NCBI GenBank assembly: GCA_902574475.1
Contig: CACGNZ010000004.1
Coordinates: 16,739-80,738 of the forward strand
Length of the DNA: 64,000 nucleotides
From: an uncultured Alphaproteobacteria bacterium
Lineage (GTDB): Bacteria > Pseudomonadota > Alphaproteobacteria > HIMB59 > GCA-002718135
Reading direction: 5' to 3'
The position numbers were made by a program, and so were the translations under genes. Positions within the stretch are counted from its first letter, which is position 1. Each line of letters begins with the position of its first letter. Of this stretch, positions 32,717 to 48,328 are shown one piece after another. A model generated the notes under the pieces. That model made no database searches. It saw only the letters and a list, made by a program, of their open reading frames with translations, and was not told the origin of the DNA.

Positions 32717-35107
32717 ATGAAATTTACACTAGACTGGCTAAAAGATCATTTAGATACTTCTGAAAATTTAAATACCATAACAGATACTCTAACCAATATT
32801 GGTTTAGAGATTGAAAGTGTAGAAGATAAATCAGAAATATTTAAGAATTTTACAGTAGCTAAAATTTTAAAAGTAGAAAAACATCCAGATGCAGATAAGC
32901 TTAAAGTATGTCAGGTTGAAACAATAAATGGAAATTATCAAGTTGTGTGTGGTGCTCCAAATGCAAGAGAAGGCATGCTTGGAATTTTTGCACCAGAAAA
33001 TAGTTACATTCCTGGAACTGACTTACATTTAAAGAAAACTAAAATTAGAGGAGTTGAGTCTTGCGGAATGCTTGTATCAGAAAGAGAGATGGGTATTTCT
33101 GATGAACACGATGGAATTATTGAACTTAAAGATAATTATAAAATTGGTGATCTATTTAGTAAAATTTTTGCAATAGATGAACCTGTTATTGAAATTAATT
33201 TAACACCAAATAGATCTGACTGTTTATCAGTCAGAGGTATCGCAAGAGATTTAGCAGCAGCAGGAATTGGTAAATTAAAAGAATTAAATTATAAAAAATC
33301 AAAAGAATCATTCAAAAGCCCAATTACGTGGAAAAAAGAATTTCAAAATAATAATCTATGTCCTGGAGTAGCAGGTCGATATTTCAAAAATGTCAAAAAT
33401 GTAGAAAGCCCTAAATGGCTTCAAGATAGATTAACCGCAATCGGATTAAGACCCATTTCAGCTCTTGTTGACATTACAAATTATATTACCTTTGACTTAG
33501 GAAGACCACTTCATGTTTACGATGCTGATAAAGTGTCAGGCAATTTAACAATGCGATTAGCCAACAAAAATGAGGAATGTTTAGCATTAAATGAAGTTAA
33601 TTATAAATGTGACATTGACATGATTGTAATTTCTGATGACGAAAAAAAACTTCATGGAATCGGTGGAGTTATGGGTGGTCTCGATAGTGGTTGTAGTATG
33701 GAGACTAAAAATGTCTTTCTAGAAGTTGCCTTATTTGATCCGATTTCTGTAACTAAAACTGGAAGAAAACTAAATCTTCAAAGTGATGCACGTTACCGTT
33801 TTGAAAGAGGGATTGATACTGATTCTATCTATTGGGGTGTCGATGCAGCAACTCAAATGATTTTGAAATTATGTGGAGGAGAAGTAAGTGAGTTCGTTTC
33901 TTCAGAAATCAATATAGATAAAACTAAGCCATTCATGTTTGATACAAATAAAGTGAAAACTTATGGTGGTATAGAAATTAATAATAAGGAACAGGAAAAA
34001 ATATTACTTTCACTTGGTTTCTCTGTTAATGAAAAAAAATCAAAATTTGAAATTCAAAGTCCTACTTTTAGACCAGATATTGTTGGTGAGGCAGATATCG
34101 TCGAAGAAATAATTAGAATTTATGGTTATAATAAAATTCCTCTAAAAAAAGTAACTAATCAAGAAGAAAAAAAGCAGATTTTAAATACTAAAACTAAAAC
34201 TTTTTATAAAAGCAAAAAAACTATAGCTCATAATGGATATTCTGAAGTTGTAACATGGTCATTTATGGATGAAAAAAAAGCAAAAATTATTTCAGATGAA
34301 ATAATTAGTTTAAAAAATCCAATAAGTACCGATTTGAACACAATGAGACCATCAACGCTTCCAAATTTATTAGAAGCAATAAATCAAAATAAAGCAAGAA
34401 TGTACTTGAGAGCTAAAATATTTGAAGTAGGTCCAAACTTTTCTAAATCATTACCAGACCAACAAGAAAATGTTGCTACTGCTATAGCTTATGGCTCATC
34501 TGATGAACAAAACTGGTTATCGAACAAAAAAAATATTGATGTCTTTAGTATAAAGGCTGATTTATTTTCTATATTAGCAAACTTAAATGTACCTATAGAT
34601 AATTTGTTATATGAAAAACTTGAAGGTCAAATCTATCATCCTGGTAAGTCATCTTCTTTAAGGCTTGGTAAAAACAAAATAGCTAATTTTGGAGAGCTGC
34701 ATCCAATTCTATTAAAAACAATGGATGTTAATTTTAAGGTATTTGGTTTTGAAATATATTTGGAGAATATTTCACAATTTCAAGAAAATAAATCTTTCTC
34801 TAAAGGTGGTTTTGCTAATAATCCTTATCAAATGGTTGAAAGAGATTTTGCCTTTCTGTTTCCAAAAGATGTTAAGGCTAGTGAGATAATTAAAAAAGTA
34901 AAAAAAATAGACAAAAATATAATTCAAAATGTAACAATATTTGATGTTTATGATGGCGATAAACTTCCAGAAAATAAAAAAAGTATTGCTTTTAGGGTAT
35001 TACTGCAACCTCAAGATAAAACATTCAACGATCAAGAAATTGAGGAATTATCAAATAAAATAATAGATGAAATATCTAAATCACTTGATGCATCTATAAG
35101 AAACTAA
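32717..35107 (+). CDS. pheT: Phenylalanyl-tRNA synthetase beta subunit
   Basis: Structural and editing subunit, 796 aa, usual length. In order: N-terminal EMAP-like tRNA-binding domain ([15 protein letters not shown], residues about 50-65), B3/B4 editing domain, B5 domain ([20 protein letters not shown]), and C-terminal ferredoxin-like anticodon domain (VERDFAFLF). Directly joined to pheS; its TAA overlaps the lepA ATG by one base (TAATG). Confidence 0.97.
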
Positions 35108-36909
35108 TGACAGAACTTACTTCTATTCGTAATTTCTCCATAGTTGCTCACATAGATCATGGGAAATCAACTTTAGCCGATAGGCTCATACAGTTTTGTG
35201 GAGGTCTAACTGATAGAGAGATGAAAGAACAGGTTTTAGACTCAATGGAATTAGAAAGAGAAAGAGGTATTACAATTAAGGCTCAAACAGTGAGACTTTC
35301 GTACAAATCAAATGATGGCAAGACTTACATACTTAATATTATGGATACCCCAGGTCATGTTGATTTTTCTTATGAGGTATCCAGATCCTTAGCTGCATGT
35401 GAGGGATCTTTATTAATAGTAGATTCTACACAAGGTGTTGAAGCTCAAACATTAGCTAATGCCTATCAAGCAATTAATAATGATCATGAAATACTGACTG
35501 TCCTAAATAAAATTGATCTTCCTTCCTCTGAGCCAGATAAAATAAAATCACAAATTGAAGATGTGCTAGGTATTGAAACTGAAAATGCTTCTCTTGTTTC
35601 AGCTAAAACAGGTGCAGGCATTGAAGATTTATTAAATAAAATTATAACACTTCTTCCATCTCCATCAGGTGAAAAAAGTAAAGAATTGAAATGTATGTTA
35701 GTTGATAGTTGGTATGACAGCTATCTTGGTGTGGTTGTACTTTTAAGGGTTATAAATGGAGAGCTAAAAAAAGGTCAGAAAATTAGATTTATGGCAACAG
35801 GTGCCACATACACAATTGATAGAGTAGGAATATTTTCTCCTAAGGCAACTGAAGTTGATAGACTAGGGCCTGGAGAAATAGGTTTTATAAATTCAGGTAT
35901 TAAAAGTGTTTCTGATTGTAAAGTTGGCGACACAATAACAGATGATAAACTTCCAACTGAAGAAGTGCTTCCAGGTTTTAAACCATCCCAACCTGTAGTT
36001 TTTTGTGGAATGTTTCCTATTGATTCAGATGACTATGAACATATGCGAGATAGCATGTCTAAACTTGCTTTGAATGACTCAAGTTTTTCTTATGAACCAG
36101 AAGTAAGTCCTGCATTAGGGTATGGTTTTCGTTGTGGTTTTTTGGGCTTACTTCATTTAGAAATTATCAGAGACCGATTTGAAAGAGAATTTAATCTAGA
36201 ACTTGTTACTACAGCACCATCAGTAGTTTATAAAATATTGATGAAAGATGGATCAACTATAAATCTTCATAATCCCACTGATATGCCTGATCCAGTAAAA
36301 ATTGAAAATATTTCTGAGCCTTGGATAAAGGCTACAATAATAGTACCTGAAGAATTTTTAGGATCAGTCTTAGAGTTATGCACTTCTAAAAGAGGTATTC
36401 AGCTAAATATGAGTTATGCAGGTAACAGACCATTAGTTGAGTATAAACTTCCACTTAATGAAGTTGTTTTTGATTTTTATGATAGACTAAAATCAATTAC
36501 AAAAGGTTACGCAAGTTTTGATTATGAAATTACAGGTTATGAAGTGAATAATTTAGTTAAGGTAGGCATACTCATTAATGGAGATCCTGTTGATGCATTA
36601 TCATTAATTGTTCATAAAGATAGGTCTGAGCAAAGAGGTAGGGCACTTTGTGAAAGATTAAAAGATTTAATTCCTAGACAACAATTCAAAGTTGCAATCC
36701 AAGCAGCTATTGGGGGTAAAGTAATTGCACGTGAAACTGTTGCTTCTTTTAGAAAAGATGTAACTCAAAAACTTTACGGCGGTGATGTAACAAGAAAAAA
36801 TAAACTTTTAGATAAGCAAAAAAAAGGTAAAAAAAGAATGAGACAGTTTGGAAAAGTAGATATTCCACAAAACACTTTTTTAAATGCATTAAAAATGAAT
36901 AATAATTAA
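35107..36909 (+). CDS. lepA: Elongation factor 4 (LepA)
   Basis: Ribosome-binding GTPase, 600 aa. G1 AHIDHGKST (14-22), switch [11 protein letters not shown]4 NKIDLP and G5 SAKTG are intact, followed by domains II, III and the LepA-specific C-terminal domain ([21 protein letters not shown]). Translation is probably coupled to pheT. Its stop shares TTAA with the first gene of the glycan island on the other strand, so it marks the island border. Confidence 0.98.
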
Positions 36910-38408
36910 AAATTAATTCTTTCTATAACTTGTCCATTTATTATTGGTGGCCATATACTATATCTTTTTTCATACCAAAAAATTTTAAAAATATTTTCTA
37001 ATACAAAGTATAATAAAACTAATAAAAGAATTGTTCTTATATATACTTTTATTGATTTAAAATTTTCTCTCATTAACTTTAACCAAAAAGGAGTTAAAAT
37101 TACAATGATAAGTGTTAAATTATAAAATATACCAAATCGATATGCTGGTGCAAAAATAAACCAAATAAGATTAGCAATAATAATTAAAATAAATAATGTT
37201 AAATAACTATATTTTTTTTTAATATTGAAAAATAAAGCTTCCTTCTCTTTCTTTAATTTAATATGAAAATAAAATATGGGCATTAATAATATAATGAAAT
37301 AAATTAAGTAAGTTTCTAGTATTTTATTAAAATGATTATGAAACCAGATACTTATCCAACTAAAACCTTCAACGCTAATTTTGGTATTAATGTCCCCTTT
37401 GGCGAAAGATTCTATATTATATGTTTCCTGTATTGCTAACTCATTATTTTGAAAACAAGTTATCTCTTGAGGCCATATTAAACAACCACTTATGTTATAA
37501 TTTTGAAAAAACCAAATAACTATTATCAAAAAAGGTATTAATAAATTCAATAAATTTATTTTATAATAATCAATTTTATGAATTATTATAAATAGATAGA
37601 GAAATATTAATGTATTTGTTATTTTAAACACAAAAGCACTAAATGATAAAATCAATACAATAAATAAAAGATTATTTGAGTAATTTTCATTTCTATCAAA
37701 ACTTTTATAAAAAATTATATAAAATACGTAAATTAATATAAGAAAACCGGGAATATCTGTGCCAAAATCTTTGTAATTATTAAGAACACCCAAAAGAAAA
37801 ATTAGAATAAATAAGGCACTAATTCCAAGATTATAATTTTGTTCTTTTATAGATCTTTTGTATAAGTAATAACTATCGTAAACAGTCATTGAATACAAAA
37901 TTGAACCCAACACAAAGTAAGTACTAGTAAAAATATTATAAGTGTATACTCCATTTAAGAAAAGCCAGAATGAGTTATAGCTAATTCTTCTATCATGCTC
38001 AATTTCGAATAACGTTTTAGATTTAAAGTTATTAATTGTCTCTAAATGATAATTAAAATCATCACTTACTCCAGCATATATAGATAAGATTGATGCAAAT
38101 AAAACTATAAAGAAAATAAATAATAAATTTTTTTTTCTAAAATATTCTTTATCTGAAGAATAAATATAAAAAAAAAATCCAAGAAATAAAATAACTAATG
38201 TTATATTGTTTGTTAAAGGAAAAAAAAAATTTACAATTCCTGATATAATTCCAACAAAAAATAAACCTTGAACGAAGATTGTATTTTTTAAACATAAAAT
38301 ATTATAATTATTATTAATAATTTTTGAAAATACAATTCCGTATCCTAAGAGACTCAATAAAGTAAAAAAAATATATATTGGTAAAATAATAATATTTACA
38401 ATAAACAT
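36906..38408 (-). CDS. Polytopic membrane protein, GT-C-like
   Basis: A 500-aa, very hydrophobic protein with about 12 predicted membrane segments. An acidic loop ([16 protein letters not shown]) follows an early membrane helix, as in GT-C lipid-linked sugar transferases and related LIC_10190-type membrane proteins. No family is recognised with certainty. Its place at the end of a minus-strand run of sugar-modifying genes supports a role in surface glycan assembly. Very AT-rich, rich in Asn/Lys/Ile. Confidence 0.6.
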
Positions 38409-38421
38409 AAAAGTTATTTTA

Positions 38422-39321
38422 TTAGCAATTATAATATTTTTCTAAAATTTTTACAGTTTTACATGATGAATCTATCAAACTGTCACAATAATTGTGGTCA
38501 TTTTGTTCAATTAATTCATTAAATTTTGTTAGTAATGAATTAAGAGGAGTTTCTGAATTCTTATAAATTAAGTTATCATCTAAATATACTTTATGATTAA
38601 TAAGATCACATTTTAAATACTTACCATTATCTAAAATTATCTTTAATACTCTACTTTTATTTTTAAATAAATTTCCCGTCAATATTCTAACATTTATTTT
38701 TTTATTAATATTAAAATTAAATTTAGCAACGATTCCATTGCCATATAAATTATTCTTACGAATTTCTTTAAAATTACTTTCAAATAATTTATCTTCAGGA
38801 AACAAATTATGTATTAGTGATATGGAGTGAAATCCCCAATCCCAAATTGGATTTATTTTATTTCTAAATTGACCAAAACTACCTTCATTTATTAGCACTC
38901 TTTTAATTTTATTTTTATTGAAATTAACAAATTTTTTTATCTCATTAAATGAACTTGAAAAAACGTTGCTTAAATTTGGTAAAATTATACTCTTATTTGC
39001 TTTATATATTTTCTTTATTTCTAAACTTGACTGATAAGAATTACTTAGAGGTTTTTCTAATATTAATGGTATTTTTTTAAAATTACTTAACTTTATTACT
39101 TCTAAATTGGTCTCTGGTAAAGCAGCTATATATATACAATCTAAATCTTTATTATCTAACATTTCATTAATACTATTAAATATATTTATATTTTTAGAAA
39201 TGTTATTGTTTCTTTTTCTACAGACAATACTTTTCAAATTAAAATTTATATGTTTTTCAATTTCTTTAGAAACAATTTTTGACCAATTTCCACAACCGAC
39301 TAAACCAATGTTATACGGCAT
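38422..39321 (-). CDS. Gfo/Idh/MocA family oxidoreductase
   Basis: NAD(P)-dependent sugar oxidoreductase of 299 aa. The Rossmann start IGLVGCGNWSK and the EKPLS motif (near residue 90) with the catalytic-type Lys are clear; the C-terminal half is short and divergent, with FGQFRNKINPIWDWG in place of the common domain. It probably oxidises or isomerises an NDP-sugar for the surface glycan. It lies 7 nt after the epimerase gene. Confidence 0.78.
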   Translation of the reverse strand: MPYNIGLVGCGNWSKIVSKEIEKHINFNLKSIVCRKRNNNISKNINIFNSINEMLDNKDLDCIYIAALPETNLEVIKLSNFKKIPLILEKPLSNSYQSSLEIKKIYKANKSIILPNLSNVFSSSFNEIKKFVNFNKNKIKRVLINEGSFGQFRNKINPIWDWGFHSISLIHNLFPEDKLFESNFKEIRKNNLYGNGIVAKFNFNINKKINVRILTGNLFKNKSRVLKIILDNGKYLKCDLINHKVYLDDNLIYKNSETPLNSLLTKFNELIEQNDHNYCDSLIDSSCKTVKILEKYYNC

Positions 39322-39328
39322 ATAAATA

Positions 39329-40360
39329 TCAGAATTTATAGTTTTCAGAAGCCCATAACAAATAATTCTTTAATCCTTTTTGTAATGTTACTTTTGGTTT
39401 GTATTTTAAATCTTTAATGGCTTTATTTATATTCGGACTTCGTCTTTGAGGCTCATCTTTAGGATATGAACTAGGATATTTAATTATTTTTGATTTAATT
39501 TTATTTTTAGCTAGATTTTTGAAAATTTTCACTATTTCTTTAACTGATATTTCTGGTTTTGTATTTCCAATATTATAAGCCTCTCCTGATTTTCCTAGAG
39601 CAGTAACTCTTAAAAAACCTTCAATGGCATCACTAATATAACAATAAGTTCTTGTTTGATTTCCAGTGCCATAAATTCTAAGTGCTTTATTATTTAAAAT
39701 ATTGCTTATAAAATTAGGAAATATCCTGTAATCATTTTGTCTCATTCCAGGTCCATAAACATTAAATGGCCTTATTATGTTTGTATGTATATCAAAATAA
39801 TTTTTATAAATATAACAATAAGTTTCTCCTAATCGCTTACTTTCATCATAGCATGACCTTGGGCCCATCGAAGTAAGATTTCCATTATAATTTTCATTTG
39901 TAGGGACATTTTTAGAATCAGGGTCTCCATATATTTCACTTGTACTAAAATAAATTAATTTTGATTTATTTTTTTTTGCTAAAGCAAGGCAATTTTTTAT
40001 ACCTTGTATTGTTACTTCAATTGTTTCAAGAGGTTCCTTTCTATAATAAAAAGGACTTGCAATACCAGCGGCATGAATAATTACATTAAATTTTTTTTTT
40101 GAATAAAATTTTTTAGAAACATCTTTTTTCACAAAATGAATATTTTTATCGTTAGCTGATTTGTCTATATTTTTATCAAATACAGTTAGATTAATCGGGT
40201 TTTTAATGATTTCGTTGTATCTTCTAAAAACTTCTACAAAATATCGTCCTAAAAAACCATTACCTCCTGTTAATAGAATTTTTTTCCCTTTGTAGAATGG
40301 TAAAATATCGTATGTATTTTTAATTATTTCATCAATATCCGAATCTATAAAATGTTTCAT
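39329..40360 (-). CDS. NAD-dependent sugar epimerase/dehydratase, UXS-like
   Basis: Extended short-chain dehydrogenase of 343 aa with the NAD site TGGNGFLGRY (31-40) and the Tyr-x3-Lys in GPRSCYDESKRLGE. That string and NVYGPGMRQNDYRIFPNF closely resemble UDP-glucuronate decarboxylase (UDP-xylose synthase). It likely makes a UDP-sugar for the island's glycan. Overlaps the upstream methyltransferase by 4 nt. Substrate specificity is inferred. Confidence 0.82.
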   Translation of the reverse strand: MKHFIDSDIDEIIKNTYDILPFYKGKKILLTGGNGFLGRYFVEVFRRYNEIIKNPINLTVFDKNIDKSANDKNIHFVKKDVSKKFYSKKKFNVIIHAAGIASPFYYRKEPLETIEVTIQGIKNCLALAKKNKSKLIYFSTSEIYGDPDSKNVPTNENYNGNLTSMGPRSCYDESKRLGETYCYIYKNYFDIHTNIIRPFNVYGPGMRQNDYRIFPNFISNILNNKALRIYGTGNQTRTYCYISDAIEGFLRVTALGKSGEAYNIGNTKPEISVKEIVKIFKNLAKNKIKSKIIKYPSSYPKDEPQRRSPNINKAIKDLKYKPKVTLQKGLKNYLLWASENYKF

Positions 40361-41541
40361 TTTAAAGTTTTAAAAGGAATTGGTTTAAAAAAAGTTACCT
40401 TGTATTTTTTAAATTTATTTTTTATATCTTTAAAATATTCGTAAGCAAACACAACAACAATATCTATTTTATTGTTAATATTACCTTTTCTTGGTAGAAT
40501 TTTTATATGAGAACCTGGTGTATATTTATTTTGTTTAATTGGGCTATCATCAATAATGTATTCTATTAATTTATCATTTATTTTTGCAAAATTTGTAATA
40601 GTTGAAACTCTGGCTGGAGATCCATATCCAATAATTTTTTTTCCTTTAGATCTCAATTCTTTAAGACTGTTTCGTAATTTATTTGATTCTAACAACATTC
40701 TTGTATTAATTTTTTTAAAATTCTTAATATTTAATTGTAAGTTTTCTCTTTTTAGAATTTTCACACACCTTTGTGTCATTTTTGTAAATTTTGAATTTTT
40801 AATATACAATCTTAAGGAGCCTCCATGAATATCAATAATCTCAATATCATATAGGCTCATATCAAACTTCTTAAACATATAATTGATCGTATTTGCAGAG
40901 TAATAAAATGGTCTATCAAAATAAAATCTTTCATACTCTAAGTTTTTTAAAAAATTATATAAATATTCTATTTCAATAATTAGGGTGCCTTCTTTCTTAA
41001 GAAAAAATTTGGTATTTTTTACAAACTCAATTGGATTTTCAAGATGAGTTATAACACTGGATGCTACAATTGCATCTGGTTTGGAATTATTTTTCAATAT
41101 TTTTCTAATAATATTTTTATCATAAAAACCAATATAGGTTTCTAACCCCCTATCATTTGCAATTTTACCAACATTTATAGATGGATCTATTCCTATGGCC
41201 TTTACTTTATTTTTTTTAAGAGGCTCAAGCAATATTCCATCGTTTGAACCTATATCTATTACAAATTTATATTTTTTAAGTTTTTTAGCTAAATTAAAAA
41301 AATGTCTTTTAAGACTTTTATTTATTGAAGATAAATAAAAATATTCATTGAACATTAATTTTCTACTAATAATATTTTTGATTTGAGCGCATTTACATTT
41401 TTTACAAAAATAAACTGATAATTTATATTTTTTTTCTTTTTTAACTTCTAATTTATTTTTTGGGTATTTATTTGCTAATGGTTGTCTATTTAAATTAAAT
41501 ATTTCAAAAGTTTTTTTTGTATTACAAATTCTACATTCCAT
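40357..41541 (-). CDS. NDP-sugar C-methyltransferase-like protein
   Basis: Three-part 394-aa protein: an N-terminal zinc-type cysteine cluster (CRICN and FCKKCKCAQ), a central SAM-binding methyltransferase fold (VIDIGSNDGILLEPLKK), and a C-terminal domain with GYGSPARVSTITNF. This layout matches the sugar C-methyltransferase family (TylC3/NovU type). It probably methylates a deoxysugar nucleotide used by the local glycosyltransferases. Located between GT2 (1-nt gap) and the UXS-like gene. Confidence 0.82.
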   Translation of the reverse strand: MECRICNTKKTFEIFNLNRQPLANKYPKNKLEVKKEKKYKLSVYFCKKCKCAQIKNIISRKLMFNEYFYLSSINKSLKRHFFNLAKKLKKYKFVIDIGSNDGILLEPLKKNKVKAIGIDPSINVGKIANDRGLETYIGFYDKNIIRKILKNNSKPDAIVASSVITHLENPIEFVKNTKFFLKKEGTLIIEIEYLYNFLKNLEYERFYFDRPFYYSANTINYMFKKFDMSLYDIEIIDIHGGSLRLYIKNSKFTKMTQRCVKILKRENLQLNIKNFKKINTRMLLESNKLRNSLKELRSKGKKIIGYGSPARVSTITNFAKINDKLIEYIIDDSPIKQNKYTPGSHIKILPRKGNINNKIDIVVVFAYEYFKDIKNKFKKYKVTFFKPIPFKTLK

Positions 41542-41542
41542 T

Positions 41543-42247
41543 TTAAAATAATGTTTTAAATCTTGTTATCAAAATCCAATAAACCACTGAAAACACATGA
41601 TAGTATCTTATTTTTTTACCTTCATCATATCTTCTAGCATCATAATTTATACCTATTTCATAAATTTTTTTAGAATTTTTCATTAAGAAAGTTAGAATCT
41701 CTGCATGCTGACCCCATTTAAATGATTTCAATTTTTCTACCATTAGATTATTTTTTTTATAAACAATGTAACAACAATATATATCTGAGAATGTTGTATT
41801 ATTTAGAACATTAAATAATATTGTTATAAATTTGTTACCAACCATATGCCAAAAATTTAGCACACTTCTTTGATTACCTATAAACCTACTACCTATAACA
41901 AGATCTGCATTATATTTCTCGATTTTAGTTAAAAACATTTTTAGGTCAAAAGGATCATACTCTAAATCAGCATCTTGAAATACAACATATTCAAAATTTG
42001 CTGATTTTAACCCCTCTATTACTGCTTTACCTTTTCCACTATTTTTTGAAAGATTAATAAGTTTTGTATATAATTTTGTATTCTTTTCTAAAATCTTCTG
42101 AGTGTTATCAGTCGATCCATCATTTATAATAATTATTTCAATCTCTGCATCATTTTTGAGAACACTTATTTTTTGAAGAATGCTCAAAATAGTTTTTTCT
42201 TCGTTAAAAACTGGTACAATTATACTTAATCTAATTTTATTTTTCAC
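41543..42247 (-). CDS. Glycosyltransferase family 2 (DPM1-like)
   Basis: Protein of 234 aa with the GT-A fold: SIIVPVFNEEKTI at the N-terminus, IIINDGSTDNT, and the DxD-type FQDADLEYDP. No C-terminal membrane helices, so it resembles polyprenyl-phosphate mannosyl/glucosyl synthases of the soluble DPM1 type. Such enzymes feed lipid-linked sugars to GT-C membrane transferases, which fits the GT-C-like protein in the same run. It is divergent from the adjacent tRNA. Confidence 0.85.
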   Translation of the reverse strand: MKNKIRLSIIVPVFNEEKTILSILQKISVLKNDAEIEIIIINDGSTDNTQKILEKNTKLYTKLINLSKNSGKGKAVIEGLKSANFEYVVFQDADLEYDPFDLKMFLTKIEKYNADLVIGSRFIGNQRSVLNFWHMVGNKFITILFNVLNNTTFSDIYCCYIVYKKNNLMVEKLKSFKWGQHAEILTFLMKNSKKIYEIGINYDARRYDEGKKIRYYHVFSVVYWILITRFKTLF

Positions 42248-42293: not shown

Positions 42294-42383
42294 GGAGAGA
42301 TGTGAGAGCGGTTTAATCAGCACGCTTGGAAAGCGTGTGTAGTAGTAATACTACCGAGGGTTCGAATCCCTCTCTCTCCGCCA
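42294..42383 (+). tRNA. tRNA-Ser(GGA)
   Basis: A complete 90-nt class II tRNA. Acceptor arms GGAGAGA and TCTCTCC pair perfectly, discriminator G precedes an encoded CCA, the anticodon stem is CACGC/GCGTG with loop TTGGAAA (anticodon GGA, reading UCC/UCU), a long variable arm is present, and the T-arm is GAGGG-TTCGAAT-CCCTC. An SGNH protein gene starts only 13 nt after CCA. A decayed second copy lies at 43525-43594. Confidence 0.97.
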
Positions 42384-42396
42384 GATATAAATCGTA

Positions 42397-43524
42397 ATGA
42401 AAAATTTTGTTTCTAATATATTTTCTATTTTGATCATTACTATATTGCTAGATTTATTTCTTACATATTTTATATTTTCTAAATTTAATTTTAATGAAAA
42501 AATTTATCCAAAGCTAGATCATAGGATCGCCAATATAAACTACCATCATTCATTTAGAGAAAATGTTTCTACTTATGATTATTGGGGTACATACAGATAT
42601 ATTTTTAAAACTAATTCTCTTGGTTTTAAGGATAGATATAATAGAGAAATTAAAAAACTTACAAATTCAAAAAAAAGAGTAATTATTATAGGAGATTCAT
42701 TTACTGAAGGGATAGGTTATGAATATGACAATACGTTTGTTGGACTTTTAGATAATCATATGCTTAATAAAAATATTGAAATACTAAATGCTGGTGTGGC
42801 CAGTCAATCACCTATAATTTATTTTAAAAAAATAAAATATCTACTTGAGGAAAAAAATATTAATTTCGATGAACTGATAGTTTTCTTGGATATTTCTGAT
42901 ATACCTGACGAATACTATTATAATATTGATTTCAATAATTATCAGAATAAACATTTTAATTTAAGGGAATTTCTTCAAGAATTTTTAATTAAAAAATCGA
43001 CATTATATTTATTTTTTGATGTAATTTTTGATAAAATAAATTTAAAAAAAGAAAAATATATTTCAAAATATAAAGCATCTAAAGAATTTAATTTAGATTT
43101 TTTTAAAACTAATAATGAGAAAATCAATTTATACAAATCTTTAAATGTTAAACGTGGCATGTGGAGTCATGATATTAATGCGTGGAATCTACATGGTACA
43201 AAAGGAAGAGAGCTTGCAGATCTATATTTAAGTAAACTTTTTGATTTATGTAAAAAAAATAAAATCAAATTTACGCTTGCAATATATCCGTGGCCAATTC
43301 ATATCTTTTATGATCACGACTCAAGTTTTCACAGAGATTATTGGGCTGATTGGGCAAAAAACAAAAATATAAAATTTATTGATTTTTTTAATTATTTTTT
43401 GAATGATAATTCTGAAGAAACAATTGAAAATTTTTTTATCAGCGGTGATATACATTGGAATAAAGATGGTCATATTTTTGTTCACGAAATAATGATGAAA
43501 GAATATTTTAAAAATATGGAATAA
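42397..43524 (+). CDS. Membrane-anchored SGNH/GDSL-family protein
   Basis: A 375-aa protein with an N-terminal membrane segment (about residues 8-30). Block I is IIIGDSFTEG near residues 96-105 with the nucleophile Ser. The C-terminal block SGDIHWNKDGH near 348-358 supplies the Asp/His pair. Such proteins often act as O-acetyl esterases or acetyltransferase partners on polysaccharides. It starts 13 nt after tRNA-Ser, leaving no room for its own promoter. It ends one base before the tRNA remnant. Substrate unknown. Confidence 0.75.
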   Translation: MKNFVSNIFSILIITILLDLFLTYFIFSKFNFNEKIYPKLDHRIANINYHHSFRENVSTYDYWGTYRYIFKTNSLGFKDRYNREIKKLTNSKKRVIIIGDSFTEGIGYEYDNTFVGLLDNHMLNKNIEILNAGVASQSPIIYFKKIKYLLEEKNINFDELIVFLDISDIPDEYYYNIDFNNYQNKHFNLREFLQEFLIKKSTLYLFFDVIFDKINLKKEKYISKYKASKEFNLDFFKTNNEKINLYKSLNVKRGMWSHDINAWNLHGTKGRELADLYLSKLFDLCKKNKIKFTLAIYPWPIHIFYDHDSSFHRDYWADWAKNKNIKFIDFFNYFLNDNSEETIENFFISGDIHWNKDGHIFVHEIMMKEYFKNME

Positions 43525-43594
43525 TTTCTAATCAGGATGCTTGTTAATAGTGTATAGTAGCAACTGCGGGGTTCAACTTCCTCTCTTTAAACCA
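43525..43594 (+). pseudogene. Decayed partial copy of tRNA-Ser
   Basis: About 70 nt align with the intact tRNA from the D-arm to CCA. Shared runs include TAATCAG, GCTTG, TAGTAG, GGGTTC-type T-arm sequence, CCTCTCT and the terminal CCA. Substitutions break the anticodon stem and the acceptor pairing, the acceptor 5' strand is missing, and the position matching the anticodon reads GTT. By eye about two-thirds of positions agree. Not a working tRNA; either an old integration scar or a duplicate. Confidence 0.7.
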
Positions 43595-43659: not shown

Positions 43660-44730
43660 GTGATTAAAATTTTCAAGGTAATTACTATTAATTTAATTAT
43701 TTTATTTATATTACTAATTGTAATTGAATTAATTTTTGGAAGCTGGTTTAAAAAAAATAATATTGGCAGTTTATTAATTCCAAAACAACAATCTAATTTA
43801 ATTACAAATTTTCCATATAAATCTGAAGATGTTGGAATTTATACAAGAGATCAATATGGTTTTAGAGCAAATAATTATGATTTAAAAGATATAAATATCC
43901 TAATACTTGGAGGTAGCACAACAGAAGAAAGAGAAGTAGATGATCAAAAAATTTGGACAAAAATTTTTGAAAAAAATCTCAAAAAAAACTTGAAAGTATT
44001 AAATGCAGGAATTGGAGGTCAAACATCATTAGGTCATAAAGAAATGTTTAATTTGTGGTTTAATAAATTTGATACATTATCTCCAAATTTTATTGTTGTT
44101 TTTTTAGGAATAAATGATGCGTTATATTTAGTAGAAACTATGACCCAGCAAAAAAATTTAAATATTTTTCCTCCCAGTAAATTAGAAATTGGAAGAAATA
44201 TTAATAACTCAAATAGAGATGCATTAATACATATCAGACAATCAGATAAAATTATTCAATATATAAAAAATAATAGTATACTTCATACATTATATCTAAT
44301 CATAAAAGGAAATTTAATATCTAATAAGTATAAAATAAATTATAACGATGATATTAAAACTTTTGAACCTTACAAAACTAAATCGCCAAAAAATGTAATG
44401 TTAAGTGAGGGTTACTTAGATCAATTTGAAAATTATTATCATAATAATTTATTAAAAATTTATAATTATACTAATGAATACAATTCTAATCTTATTTTAG
44501 TAACTCAATTAGTATCAAGTAAACATTGGATTAAAGAATATTTAGAAATAATAAACAAATTTACAATATCTTTTTGTAAAATAAAAAAAATAAATTGCAT
44601 TGATCTAGAAAAAAAAATATTAGGTCTTAATGATAATTCCTTTTATGATGGTATTCATACAGATACAAATGGTTCTAAGATTATTGGTGAGTTTATTGCT
44701 AAAGAGTTCAATAAATTAATTATGGAGTAG
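43660..44730 (+). CDS. Membrane-anchored SGNH-hydrolase-like protein, second gene
   Basis: A 356-aa protein with one N-terminal membrane segment (about residues 6-27). Block I is ILILGGSTTEE near residue 83, block III is FLGINDAL, and block V is DGIHTDTNG near residue 330, giving the Ser/Gly/Asn/His set of SGNH hydrolases. The start is GTG. It is only distantly similar to the preceding SGNH gene. Likely works on surface glycan in the periplasm; inferred from context. Confidence 0.75.
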   Translation: MIKIFKVITINLIILFILLIVIELIFGSWFKKNNIGSLLIPKQQSNLITNFPYKSEDVGIYTRDQYGFRANNYDLKDINILILGGSTTEEREVDDQKIWTKIFEKNLKKNLKVLNAGIGGQTSLGHKEMFNLWFNKFDTLSPNFIVVFLGINDALYLVETMTQQKNLNIFPPSKLEIGRNINNSNRDALIHIRQSDKIIQYIKNNSILHTLYLIIKGNLISNKYKINYNDDIKTFEPYKTKSPKNVMLSEGYLDQFENYYHNNLLKIYNYTNEYNSNLILVTQLVSSKHWIKEYLEIINKFTISFCKIKKINCIDLEKKILGLNDNSFYDGIHTDTNGSKIIGEFIAKEFNKLIME

Positions 44731-44772: not shown

Positions 44773-46749
44773 TTAAATTTTTTTACACCAAAACTGATAC
44801 ATACCAGAAAAAATTCTAGGATTATTTTTTTCATACTCTTCCCATTTATTTAAATTATAAATATCATTATTTTCATCATAAACTTCTTTGAATTTTTTTA
44901 TTACGTATGTATCTTCAAAACCCAAAAATTTTATATTTAAATCTTTCATATATTTTTCTATTTTTGGAATAGTAAACCTATGTTCTTTAATATGAAATAG
45001 TAAATCCCTTACTCCACTAGTTGAATAAAAATCTGGACTATATTTAATACTGTCCCATTTCGTATTAGGATTATCAAAAATATCTTTTCTAAAATTAATA
45101 ATATTTTTTTGTGTAGTTTTGATTTTTGAACTATTTATTTTTTCTCTTATATTTGCAATATTTTCTCGAGCTTTTTCACTATATAAACCAATTAACATTA
45201 AAGCATCTTTTTTTAAACAATCAGTCAAGCTCTTCCATCCTGCTAGTGGATCATCCATATGATGCAGAACACCAACTGACTCTATTATATCGAATTTTTT
45301 ATCTAATTTTCTTAAGTCTAATAAATCTCCTTGAATAAAATTTATATTTTGACAATTTAATTCTTCAGCTTTTCTTTTTGCATATGCTAAACTATTAAAA
45401 CTAAGGTCTAAGGCAAAAATTTCTGCGTTTTTGTATTTAGAAGCTGTAGTTATAGCGTGTTGTCCAGTACCACATCCCGCAATTAAAATTTCTGTATTTT
45501 TAGAAAACTTTATTTTTTTCAAATCTAAGTCTAAATTTATATCCGAAATTACTTCTTTTATAACTTTAGGCTCAATACTTAAACCAAGATTAGTCCATCT
45601 AGGATATGGATTTTCTTCATATTGATTTTTGACTTTTATTGAGACACTATCATTAATCTCTTTAATTGATTTTATTTTTTGAATATGTTTTTTTTCTTCA
45701 TTATAATTTCTATATTGTAATATAAATGTTTCTTTTAATTCATTTGAAGGATTTATTTTTTTACACCAATCAAAGCTAAATAATGGAGAATAACAAGATA
45801 AGATAAGTATCTCTAAATCATTTATTTCTTTGCTATTAATATTATTTTTAATTCTTTCGTTAATCATATTAACTTTAAATTTTTCTTCATCTGTTTCAAA
45901 ATATACATATTCATTTAAAAAACATTGTGCTGATAATGAAATTAAGAAATTCAAATAAATTTTTTTAAAATTTAAATTATAAATCTGATTTAAAATTTCA
46001 TTTCTAATTTTTATGAAATTTTTTTCAAAATAATAATTAGGAATAGGACAAACTTTCATAAATTGTAACAAAAGTTTATTCTCATTTAACAACTCTATAA
46101 TTTTATTTAAATTTTTTGGATAGTTTTTATTTTTTATTAACGAAAAACTATCTTTCAAATTTGTATTTAAAAATAAACCATTTATTACATTTGTAGCTAT
46201 AGCACTTGGCCTAACAATTATTTTTTTTTCAAGAAGATATAAAAAAAACTTGTTTATGTATTTATTCTTTTCATCTAATATGAAATGCTGCAGTACCCCT
46301 GCTAAATTATAAAATGCTCTAACATAGTTTGGATTTATTTTTATAGTTAATATATAATATTCTAATGCCTTCTTATTTAAATTTTTTTTTCTAAAAATAT
46401 TTCCTAAATTATTGTATGCTTTGTAATAGTTTTGATCTATATCAATTACTTTTTTATAATTTTCTATTGCTTTATCTTCTTCGCCCAGCTTATTATAAAT
46501 ATTTGCTAGATTATAATAACCATCATTGTATTTTGGACTTAAACTAACAACTTTAATAAATATTTTTTTTGCTAAAATATAATTTTTAAGTTCAGTGTGA
46601 ATTACACCTGAAATATTATTAACTAAAATCGAATCAGGATATTCTTTAAGAATTTTACTAGAAAAATTAATGGCTTCTAAATAATTTTTTTGATTATAAA
46701 GGAGTATAATTTTTTCAATTGTTTTTTTATCAGGTTCTTTTTTAATCAT
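44773..46749 (-). CDS. TPR-repeat protein fused to SAM-dependent methyltransferase
   Basis: A 658-aa protein in two parts. Residues about 5-160 hold roughly four TPR repeats (GYYNLANIYNKLGEEDKAIENYKKV and similar). A middle region without recognised motifs follows. From about 415 a class I methyltransferase carries ILIAGCGTGQHA and SVGVLHHMDDP. TPR-methyltransferase fusions occur in marine alphaproteobacteria, often near surface-glycan genes, but the acceptor is unknown. It lies 1 nt after the yejF-like stop side of the transporter run, on the same strand. Confidence 0.75.
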   Translation of the reverse strand: MIKKEPDKKTIEKIILLYNQKNYLEAINFSSKILKEYPDSILVNNISGVIHTELKNYILAKKIFIKVVSLSPKYNDGYYNLANIYNKLGEEDKAIENYKKVIDIDQNYYKAYNNLGNIFRKKNLNKKALEYYILTIKINPNYVRAFYNLAGVLQHFILDEKNKYINKFFLYLLEKKIIVRPSAIATNVINGLFLNTNLKDSFSLIKNKNYPKNLNKIIELLNENKLLLQFMKVCPIPNYYFEKNFIKIRNEILNQIYNLNFKKIYLNFLISLSAQCFLNEYVYFETDEEKFKVNMINERIKNNINSKEINDLEILILSCYSPLFSFDWCKKINPSNELKETFILQYRNYNEEKKHIQKIKSIKEINDSVSIKVKNQYEENPYPRWTNLGLSIEPKVIKEVISDINLDLDLKKIKFSKNTEILIAGCGTGQHAITTASKYKNAEIFALDLSFNSLAYAKRKAEELNCQNINFIQGDLLDLRKLDKKFDIIESVGVLHHMDDPLAGWKSLTDCLKKDALMLIGLYSEKARENIANIREKINSSKIKTTQKNIINFRKDIFDNPNTKWDSIKYSPDFYSTSGVRDLLFHIKEHRFTIPKIEKYMKDLNIKFLGFEDTYVIKKFKEVYDENNDIYNLNKWEEYEKNNPRIFSGMYQFWCKKI

Positions 46750-46750
46750 T

Positions 46751-48328
46751 TTATATAACTGAAGAAATTAGTTTCTTAGTGTATTCTGACTTGGGTGAAT
46801 TAAAAATATCTTTACTTAAATTTTCTTCAACAATTAATCCTTCTTTTAAAACAATAATTTTATTAGCAATAGCTCTTATAACTCGCATATCATGACTTAT
46901 AAAAATGTAACTTAAGCTTAATTCTTTTTGTAGTTTATTTAATAGACTTATTATTTGATTTTGAATTGTCACATCTAAAGCAGAAGTAGGTTCATCTAAA
47001 ATTAGTATCTTAGGTTCTAAAATTAAAGCTCTCGCAATTGCAATTCTTTGTCTTTGACCTCCAGAAAACTCATGAGGATATTTTTCTATTGTACTTTCAT
47101 ACTCTAAACCAACTTTTTCCAAAATATTTTTTAATTTTATTTTTTTTTCTACCAAGCTAATATTTGGATAATGAACCATTAAACCCTCTGATAAAATATC
47201 TTCGATATTCATTCTTGGACTTAGAGATGAAAATGGGTCTTGAAATACAACTTGAATGTCTTTTCTTAATTCTAATACCTCTCTTTTATTTAAATCATTT
47301 AAATTTTTATTATTTATTATTATTTCTCCTTTAGACTTTATTAATTTAAGAATTGCCAAAATAAGAGAAGTTTTTCCTGATCCTGATTCGCCTACAACAC
47401 CAATAGTTTCGCCAATTCCTAAATTAAAGCTAACATTCTTAATTGCTTTTACATAATCAATTGTCCTTTTAAGTAATCCTTTTTTTATAGGATACCAAAC
47501 GTTTAGATTCTTAATATTTATTATTGATTTATTTTTTTGATTAATGTTATCTTTAATATTATTTTGAGTTGATACTAATTCTTTTGTATATTTATTTTCA
47601 GGATTATTAAATATTTTTTCTTTTGTTCCAAATTCAATTACTTTGCCATTTTTCATAACATATATGTAATCTGATAATTTTTTCACAACAGAGAGATCAT
47701 GGCTTATGAAAATCAAAGACATACCCATTTTTTTTTGAATATTTTGTAATAACTCTAAGATTTGTAATTGTATTGTTACATCTAAAGCTGTAGTTGGCTC
47801 ATCTGCTATTAATACATCTGGTTCATTTGCAATACTCATCGCAATCATAACCCTTTGTCTTTGTCCACCAGATAGTTCATATGGATAAATTTTTGGTCTT
47901 GATGAAATATCACTAAGTCCAACTTCATTTAGTAATTTTATAGTTCTGTTTTTTGCTTCTTTTTTACTTAAAGAATTATGAGTAGTAATAATTTCTTCAA
48001 TTTGTTTATTTATTGTATGTAAAGGATTTAAACTTGTCATTGGTTCCTGAAATATTGTTGAAATTTTATTTCCTCTTATATTTTGAATTTCTTTTTGACT
48101 TAAATTTAATAAATTTTTGTTATTATATTTTATTTCTCCTGTCTTGATGTTGGCTCCATTAGGCAATAATTTTAATATACTTAGAGCTGATAATGTTTTA
48201 CCTGACCCAGATTCTCCAACAATTGCTGTAGTTTTACCTTTTACTACATCAATATTTACATTTTTAACTACTTCAGTAAATTTATTAAAAGCTATACTTA
48301 AATTATTTATTGATATTACTTTTTCCAT
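46751..48328 (-). CDS. yejF: Peptide ABC transporter, duplicated ATP-binding protein (YejF-like)
   Basis: A 525-aa fusion of two ABC ATPases. Each half has Walker A GESGSGKT (38-45 and about 315-322), signature LSGGQRQR or FSGGQRQR, and Walker B ADEPTTALD or LDEPTSALD. This double ATPase is typical of the YejABEF system for oligopeptides and microcin C-like compounds. It energises the YejB/YejE pore and follows yejE after 1 nt. Confidence 0.93.
   Translation of the reverse strand: MEKVISINNLSIAFNKFTEVVKNVNIDVVKGKTTAIVGESGSGKTLSALSILKLLPNGANIKTGEIKYNNKNLLNLSQKEIQNIRGNKISTIFQEPMTSLNPLHTINKQIEEIITTHNSLSKKEAKNRTIKLLNEVGLSDISSRPKIYPYELSGGQRQRVMIAMSIANEPDVLIADEPTTALDVTIQLQILELLQNIQKKMGMSLIFISHDLSVVKKLSDYIYVMKNGKVIEFGTKEKIFNNPENKYTKELVSTQNNIKDNINQKNKSIINIKNLNVWYPIKKGLLKRTIDYVKAIKNVSFNLGIGETIGVVGESGSGKTSLILAILKLIKSKGEIIINNKNLNDLNKREVLELRKDIQVVFQDPFSSLSPRMNIEDILSEGLMVHYPNISLVEKKIKLKNILEKVGLEYESTIEKYPHEFSGGQRQRIAIARALILEPKILILDEPTSALDVTIQNQIISLLNKLQKELSLSYIFISHDMRVIRAIANKIIVLKEGLIVEENLSKDIFNSPKSEYTKKLISSVI

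What the first reader, a model, noticed from the sequence alone, without database searches (positions are those of the whole stretch)
42294..43594. Intact tRNA-Ser and a decayed tRNA-Ser copy bracket one SGNH gene
The intact tRNA-Ser(GGA) ends at 42383. A degenerate 70-nt copy, from D-arm to CCA, lies at 43525-43594. The SGNH gene fits exactly between them (13 nt after the tRNA, 1 nt before the remnant). Integration at tRNA 3' ends leaves such partial copies, but no integrase is visible and the copy is longer than a usual att core. A second model is tandem duplication of tRNA plus gene, then decay. The two SGNH genes are too different for a recent duplication, which favours repeated cargo exchange at a tRNA hotspot.
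Basis: partly seen in the sequence, partly recalled or inferred. Interest (0 to 1): 0.8.

Follow-up and report, generated by a model that had tools for sequence, protein, structure and literature searches.

The report
Decayed gene cassette beside a tRNA
An old tRNA fragment next to a working serine-tRNA gene marks the far end of a small mobile gene unit that once inserted there, and relatives of this ocean bacterium carry rows of such units, each with the landing signals of a phage-type integrase but, at this tRNA, no intact integrase gene.

Summary
The 70-nt stretch at 43525-43594 is a dead copy of tRNA-Ser(GGA) nt 19-90 (score 55; best of 20,000 shuffles 37). Tandem duplication is not supported; insertion is. 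In 75 congeners (HIMB59/MarineAlpha5-type marine Alphaproteobacteria) the lepA-yejF tRNA is an insertion hotspot. Two genomes have nothing between tRNA and yejF; 32 carry 1-4 extra 3' fragments, mostly starting at nt 19 or 21 and ending at CCA; six carry 5' fragments upstream. Better-preserved units have fixed anatomy: tRNA, 45 nt, a pair of 11-bp-spaced direct repeats, cargo, a matching repeat pair 78-80 nt before the fragment, fragment. That is a P2-type attP with both arms. Related integrases at tRNA-Gln have the same repeats just before their start codon. At tRNA-Ser no intact integrase was found in 162 genomes; only truncated starts remain. Units are mobile: one gene is 98.5-99.3% identical across divergent hosts, and a 12.2-kb unit is about 99% identical end to end across genera. 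tRNA halves are shuffled, with breakpoints in the anticodon arm. The window's SGNH gene is a degraded unit that lost its arms; a homologue in G071 keeps them. This is a variant of known "additive islands". Mobilisation by an integrase in trans is inferred.

The parts
35107..36909 (+). lepA, conserved left anchor of the locus in most relatives
36906..42247 (-). five-gene surface-glycan block (DUF6056-like membrane protein, GFO/IDH oxidoreductase, NAD-dependent epimerase, C-methyltransferase, GT2); the same block lies upstream of the tRNA in about 18 relatives
42294..42383 (+). intact tRNA-Ser(GGA): the attachment-site gene, only GGA copy found in this assembly
42397..43524 (+). cargo of the decayed unit: SGNH/GDSL hydrolase-like protein, 375 aa, N-terminal hydrophobic segment; homologue in G071 (65.5% aa) lies between two tRNA fragments with arm repeats
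43525..43594 (+). decayed tRNA-Ser 3' fragment (nt 19-90), the displaced end of an integration event
43660..44730 (+). second SGNH/GDSL gene, different family (cluster 20); older neighbour, also next to the TPR-methyltransferase in G067; no fragment after it
44773..46749 (-). TPR-methyltransferase, 658 aa, right neighbour in about 50 relatives; directly follows the tRNA (about 12 nt) in G051
46751..48328 (-). yejF-type ABC transporter ATPase, conserved right anchor; 8 nt from the tRNA in the empty site of G054

Best explanation
The window holds an old, degraded integrative unit at tRNA-Ser(GGA). A circular element carrying an attP (arm repeats, a copy of the tRNA from the D-loop to CCA, arm repeats) recombined with the chromosomal tRNA at the anticodon arm. 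The new tRNA uses the element's 3' half; the host's displaced 3' half (nt 19-90) stayed beyond the cargo and decayed. The cargo, an SGNH-type surface hydrolase gene, was kept, while about 100 nt on the left and 70 nt on the right, with the arm repeats, were deleted. Relatives show the intact state: tandem rows of units with zero to a few genes and matched P2-type arm sites, but no integrase. Shown: hotspot, empty sites, fragment boundaries, arm repeats and their pairing, transfer between genera, swapped tRNA halves. Inferred: an integrase supplied from elsewhere (phage or a sister element) moves them.
For: (1) Fragments at the locus in 32 of 75 congeners, all in the tRNA's orientation; of 50 alignments tabulated, 32 start at nt 19 or 21 and 37 end at nt 90. 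(2) Sites without cargo downstream of the tRNA in G054 and G060. (3) Arm repeats at +43 to +47 after CCA and mostly 75 to 81 nt before nt 19; the two arms of one unit match better than shuffled pairings (17.4 against 14.25, sd 0.46; 0 of 20,000; 18 non-redundant units). The strict repeat pattern gives 16 sites in 102 genomes and 0 for the reversed control, 12 of the 16 at this locus. (4) The same repeat directly precedes integrase genes at tRNA-Gln in 3'- and 5'-type elements; these integrases are nearest to P2-like Mannheimia phage integrases among deposited phages, 29% identity, and P2-type integrases bind two arm sites of two direct repeats each (PMC3931495). (5) Zn-dehydrogenase unit 98.5-99.3% nt identical where yejF ends are 44-93% identical; 12.2-kb unit 98.9-99.7% identical end to end in G042, G105, G106. 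(6) Intact tRNAs combine two 5' halves and two 3' halves in all four ways, breakpoint nt 27-45. (7) A homologous SGNH unit with both arms in G071.
Against: The window copy itself has no arm repeats, so its membership rests on the fragment and on the G071 homologue. In G025 and G056 SGNH homologues lie in a different block (with clusters 24 and 25), so the gene may also have entered the old unit by ordinary recombination. No intact integrase for tRNA-Ser was found, and no excised circle or transfer was observed. Genomes are incomplete single-cell assemblies or MAGs; contig ends could hide an integrase.
Confidence: 0.88

Rival explanations
1. Cargo moves by ordinary homologous recombination between conserved flanks or between tRNA fragments, and the fragments are passive relics of a few ancient integrations.
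For: Glycan blocks upstream of the tRNA look like replacement islands, and 70-nt repeats could support recombination. The window's SGNH family also occurs in a block without tRNA fragments (G025).
Against: The 12.2-kb unit is shared end to end between G042 and G106, whose sequence upstream of the tRNA differs (lepA end against a transporter gene). Arm repeats sit at fixed distances and match within units. Units differ between neighbours in one array.
Confidence: 0.2
2. Tandem duplication of tRNA plus SGNH gene followed by decay.
For: Two SGNH genes flank the remnant.
Against: The two SGNH proteins fall in separate sequence clusters; the remnant lacks tRNA nt 1-18 like dozens of others and is closer to remnants elsewhere than to its own tRNA; many cargoes, one boundary.
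Confidence: 0.02
3. The remnant is a chance resemblance or a selected RNA element (for example a terminator or tRNA-like regulator) rather than an integration scar.
For: It still ends in CCA.
Against: Alignment far above shuffles, no stable fold, same boundaries as fragments that delimit mobile units.
Confidence: 0.02
4. Each unit once carried its own integrase and is only a decayed ordinary island, never mobile without it.
For: 5'-type elements keep 43-106 codons of an integrase start after the arm repeat (G094, G020, G026, G102).
Against: 3'-type units of 0.1-1.5 kb show no integrase trace, keep both arms intact and spread recently at about 99% identity across genera. Recent movement without an integrase inside implies help from outside.
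Confidence: 0.3

Closest known systems
Additive flexible genomic islands with tRNA direct repeats (Ca. Actinomarinales, PMC7771536; Alteromonas, PMC4119200; Methylopumilus tRNA-Lys repeats, PMC10872708)
   Same: [quoted passage not shown] streamlined aquatic hosts
   Different: The passages read describe no arm sites; here each better-preserved unit has a full P2-type attP, two orientation classes and an inferred crossover in the anticodon arm
tDNA genomic islands as defined by Islander (PMC4383910)
   Same: intact tRNA plus displaced fragment, correct side and orientation, anticodon-centred site
   Different: no integrase inside and many units under 2 kb, so Islander's filters would reject them; three or more fragments in a row, while that database lists only 4 tandems of three or more
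Cis-mobilisable elements and ssrA islands of Dehalococcoides (PMC3146451)
   Same: tandem array at one RNA gene in which about half the islands lack the integration module
   Different: there a serine recombinase module is present in the same array; here a tyrosine integrase family is implied and no intact copy is found at the locus
Tycheposons (described second-hand in PMC10872708)
   Same: tRNA-bordered cargo elements in streamlined marine bacteria
   Different: 4-200 kb with tyrosine recombinase; units here are 0.1-12 kb without it
P2-like phage integrase/attP systems (PMC3931495)
   Same: two arm sites, each of two direct repeats, flanking a tRNA core; integrase homologues 29% identical
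   Different: arms retained without the integrase or any phage gene
Integron gene cassettes
   Same: array of small, mostly one- to few-gene units with a common recombination end
   Different: no integron integrase at the locus; the end is a tRNA half plus arm repeats; excision chemistry not tested

Membership tests
tDNA-integrated genomic island (Islander definition) | intact tRNA plus displaced fragment, same orientation, 3' fragment downstream | tested here: met
tDNA-integrated genomic island (Islander definition) | integrase gene inside the island | tested here: not met
   No PF00589 hit at the locus in 102 genomes; only truncated starts
tDNA-integrated genomic island (Islander definition) | length 2-200 kb | tested here: not met
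   window unit about 1.2 kb; relatives 0.1-12 kb
Additive flexible genomic island | variable cassettes added at a tRNA, ended by partial tRNA repeats, same genomic position in relatives | tested here: met
P2-type attP | two arm sites of paired direct repeats flanking the core | tested here: met
   met in relatives; absent from the window copy
P2-type attP | binding and recombination by a cognate integrase | not testable with these tools
   needs biochemistry
Tycheposon | tyrosine recombinase on board and size 4-200 kb | tested here: not met
   definition from PMC10872708
Cis-mobilisable element | flanked by att sites, no recombination genes | tested here: met
   (relatives); window copy only partly, arms lost
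Cis-mobilisable element | moved by a neighbouring or helper element | not testable with these tools
   recent spread implied by about 99% identity
Integron cassette array | integron integrase and attI with attC sites | tested here: not met
   no tyrosine recombinase at the locus; attC folding was not tested

The most novel reading that the evidence does not exclude
A tRNA-based cassette system: tRNA-Ser acts as the platform and many integrase-free units, each little more than attP arms around a cargo gene, are shuffled between genera by P2-like integrases acting in trans, with arm-repeat specificities that differ between unit lineages. It would be an integron-like gene-exchange network without a resident integrase in a streamlined ocean lineage.
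Probability: 0.4. Interest if true: 0.82.

Novelty: new variant of a known kind. Interest (0 to 1): 0.6.

Why it matters
How streamlined ocean bacteria acquire genes is an open question. A published survey of this clade noted no tRNA at the borders of the phosphate islands it studied and suggested homologous recombination (PMC10734472). Here one tRNA gene collects small units with recognisable integrase sites, and the same sites name a candidate enzyme family. That makes the route testable: the arm repeats predict which integrase should move which unit. Islander's filters for size and integrase would miss such units, so they may be common.

Tried and rejected
Viral contigs: no match for the tRNA core, the strict arm repeat, or the repeat plus integrase start, and no integrase relative, so no helper virus was identified. 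Deposited phages gave only P2-like and other integrases below 60% identity. Defence-system scan of ten cargo proteins: no hits. Tandem duplication rejected (see rivals). A sensitive search for a fragment beside the SGNH homologue in G025 found nothing convincing. My first count of 5'-type genomes (7) included a decayed full-length copy in G067; the corrected number is 6.

Full report
OBSERVATION. The intact tRNA-Ser(GGA) is at 42294-42383. The stretch 43525-43594 aligns to tRNA nt 19-90; score 55 against a shuffle mean of 16.0 (sd 3.1, best of 20,000: 37), and the next best place in the 64-kb window scores 32. It does not fold as a tRNA and is not called by ARAGORN or Rfam. The SGNH gene fills the space exactly.

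HOST. Exact-pattern hits in named genomes are mostly marine single-cell genomes titled uncultured Alphaproteobacteria (AG-xxx series) and MarineAlpha5_Bin5. From my own knowledge these correspond to the HIMB59/AEGEAN-169 order; no tool named the window's genome. The genome held is 1.30 Mb in 59 contigs, 84% complete, with one GGA tRNA-Ser found and a second, 78% identical match elsewhere.

COMPARATIVE TEST. lepA, tRNA-Ser and yejF were located in 102 congeners and the interval fetched. In 75 genomes with the locus, 32 carry one or more extra 3' fragments between tRNA and yejF, 15 carry two or more, and G007 carries four. Fragments are always in the tRNA's orientation, most often start at nt 19 or 21 and end at nt 90. 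In G054 the tRNA lies about 15 nt after lepA and 8 nt from yejF: an empty site; G060 is also empty downstream but has one 233-aa gene upstream. Six genomes carry the opposite type, a 5' fragment (nt 1 to 40-52) upstream of the intact tRNA (G036, G094, G020, G024, G026, G001).

ANATOMY OF INTACT UNITS. Between tRNA and fragment the units carry zero to eleven ORFs. A pair of direct repeats spaced 11 bp, for example CGGCACACATACGGCACACTT, lies 43-47 nt after the CCA and a second pair 75-81 nt before the fragment. The sequence of the repeat varies between units (GGCTACACATAGGCTACAC, GATCACACATAGATCACAC, GGTTGCACATGGGTTGCAT) but the two arms of one unit match each other: 17.4 matching positions against 14.25 for shuffled pairings, 0 of 20,000 shuffles as good, 18 non-redundant units. 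A scan for such repeats gave 65 in the fetched loci against 10 in shuffled sequence. A strict form of the motif occurs 16 times in 102 genomes and never as its reversed control; 12 of those 16 are at this locus. Two of the other four lie beside a tRNA-Gln (G005, next to an integrase gene; G006, with a 53-nt direct repeat and a 1.7-kb integrase-less unit), the other two near a tRNA-Arg (G076, G086). Minimal units with one repeat pair and no gene exist (G067, G009; 5'-type in G024).

INTEGRASE LINK. In G005 and G050 (3'-type) and in G059 and G103 (5'-type) an integrase gene starts directly after the arm repeat next to tRNA-Gln or its 5' half. The 5'-type units at tRNA-Ser have the same layout, but the integrase is cut after 43-48 codons (G094, G020, G026) or 106 codons (G102). 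The integrase belongs to PF00589 and its best matches among deposited phages are P2-like Mannheimia phages, 29% identical. P2-type integration uses two arm-binding sites, each of two direct repeats (PMC3931495), which is the layout seen. No PF00589 gene lies at the tRNA-Ser locus in 102 genomes, and the G005 integrase finds only the truncated G102 copy there among 162 genomes of the order.

MOBILITY. The Zn-dehydrogenase gene is 98.5-99.3% identical at nucleotide level in six genomes whose yejF ends are 44-93% identical. A 12.2-kb unit (histidinol-dehydrogenase-like, SnoaL, cupin, sugar ABC transporter, LacI) is 98.9-99.7% identical from tRNA end to fragment end in G042 and in G105/G106 of another genus; G105 has an extra 1.1 kb near the left arm, and the sequence upstream of the tRNA differs between G042 and G106. 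Identity below 100% argues against cross-contamination. G105 shows a row of at least five units, several with different repeat specificities.

tRNA PATCHWORK. Intact tRNA-Ser genes fall into two 5'-half and two 3'-half haplotypes, and all four combinations occur, with the breakpoint between nt 27 and 45, the anticodon arm. This is what insertion of 5'- and 3'-type elements should do. The window remnant matches foreign remnants better (67) than its own tRNA (55) and carries a variant 3'-half base, as expected if the element brought the present 3' half.

THE WINDOW UNIT. The SGNH protein (weak PF13472 match) has homologues in G025 (77%), G071 (65.5%) and G056 (57%). In G071 it lies between two tRNA fragments with arm repeats on both sides. 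In the window the leader is 13 nt instead of about 110 and the trailer is absent instead of about 70 nt, so both arms were deleted (inference). In G025 and G056 the gene sits beside two other shared genes, so its earlier path is not settled.

WHAT IS SHOWN AND WHAT IS INFERRED. Shown: real remnant, hotspot, empty site, boundaries, paired arm repeats, link to an integrase family, recent transfer, swapped tRNA halves. Inferred: crossover by that integrase family, supply in trans, identity of the carrier, and benefit of the cargo.

NOVELTY. Tandem cassettes with tRNA repeats are known as additive islands in streamlined marine bacteria (PMC7771536, PMC10872708), and integrase-less tandem islands are known in Dehalococcoides (PMC3146451). 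The new parts are the complete arm architecture on sub-kilobase units, the two orientation classes, the tRNA half-swapping and the missing resident integrase. I found no report of this in the HIMB59 papers searched, but the library is not complete; the original tycheposon paper was not available.

Noticed in passing
L046 1346-13543, L159 1895-15165, L160 2630-14826: A 12.2-kb integrase-less catabolic unit about 99% identical in two genera; gene content (histidinol-dehydrogenase-like, SnoaL, ABC transporter, LacI) suggests uptake and breakdown of an unidentified organic substrate.
   Followed up: partly
L040 1270-1650, L069 30-350, L073 4809-5100, L158 2026-2500: 5'-type elements keep only the first 43-106 codons of an integrase, right after the arm repeat, in several genomes; the short reading frame ends near the same codon in two of them and might be a separate product.
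   Followed up: partly
L072 1116-1400, L036 223-490, L080 1525-1791: Empty units: a bare attP with one repeat pair and no gene sits at the tRNA.
   Followed up: partly
L084 4545-6308 (G006): The same kind of integrase-less unit at tRNA-Gln with a 53-nt tRNA repeat and arm repeats at both ends.
   Followed up: partly
window 42338-42380, minus strand: Rfam family RF04351 (plastid psbL-rps4 3'UTR) matches the antisense strand of tRNA-Ser; the family model may describe an antisense tRNA-Ser.
   Followed up: no
window 36906-42247: Five-gene glycan block directly upstream of the tRNA, shared by about 18 relatives and absent or replaced in others: a second, replacement-type variable region beside the cassette site.
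   Followed up: no
L052 4280-4369 (G034): A second full-length tRNA-Ser copy (86% identical, anticodon loop altered) 8 nt from yejF at the far end of the array.
   Followed up: no
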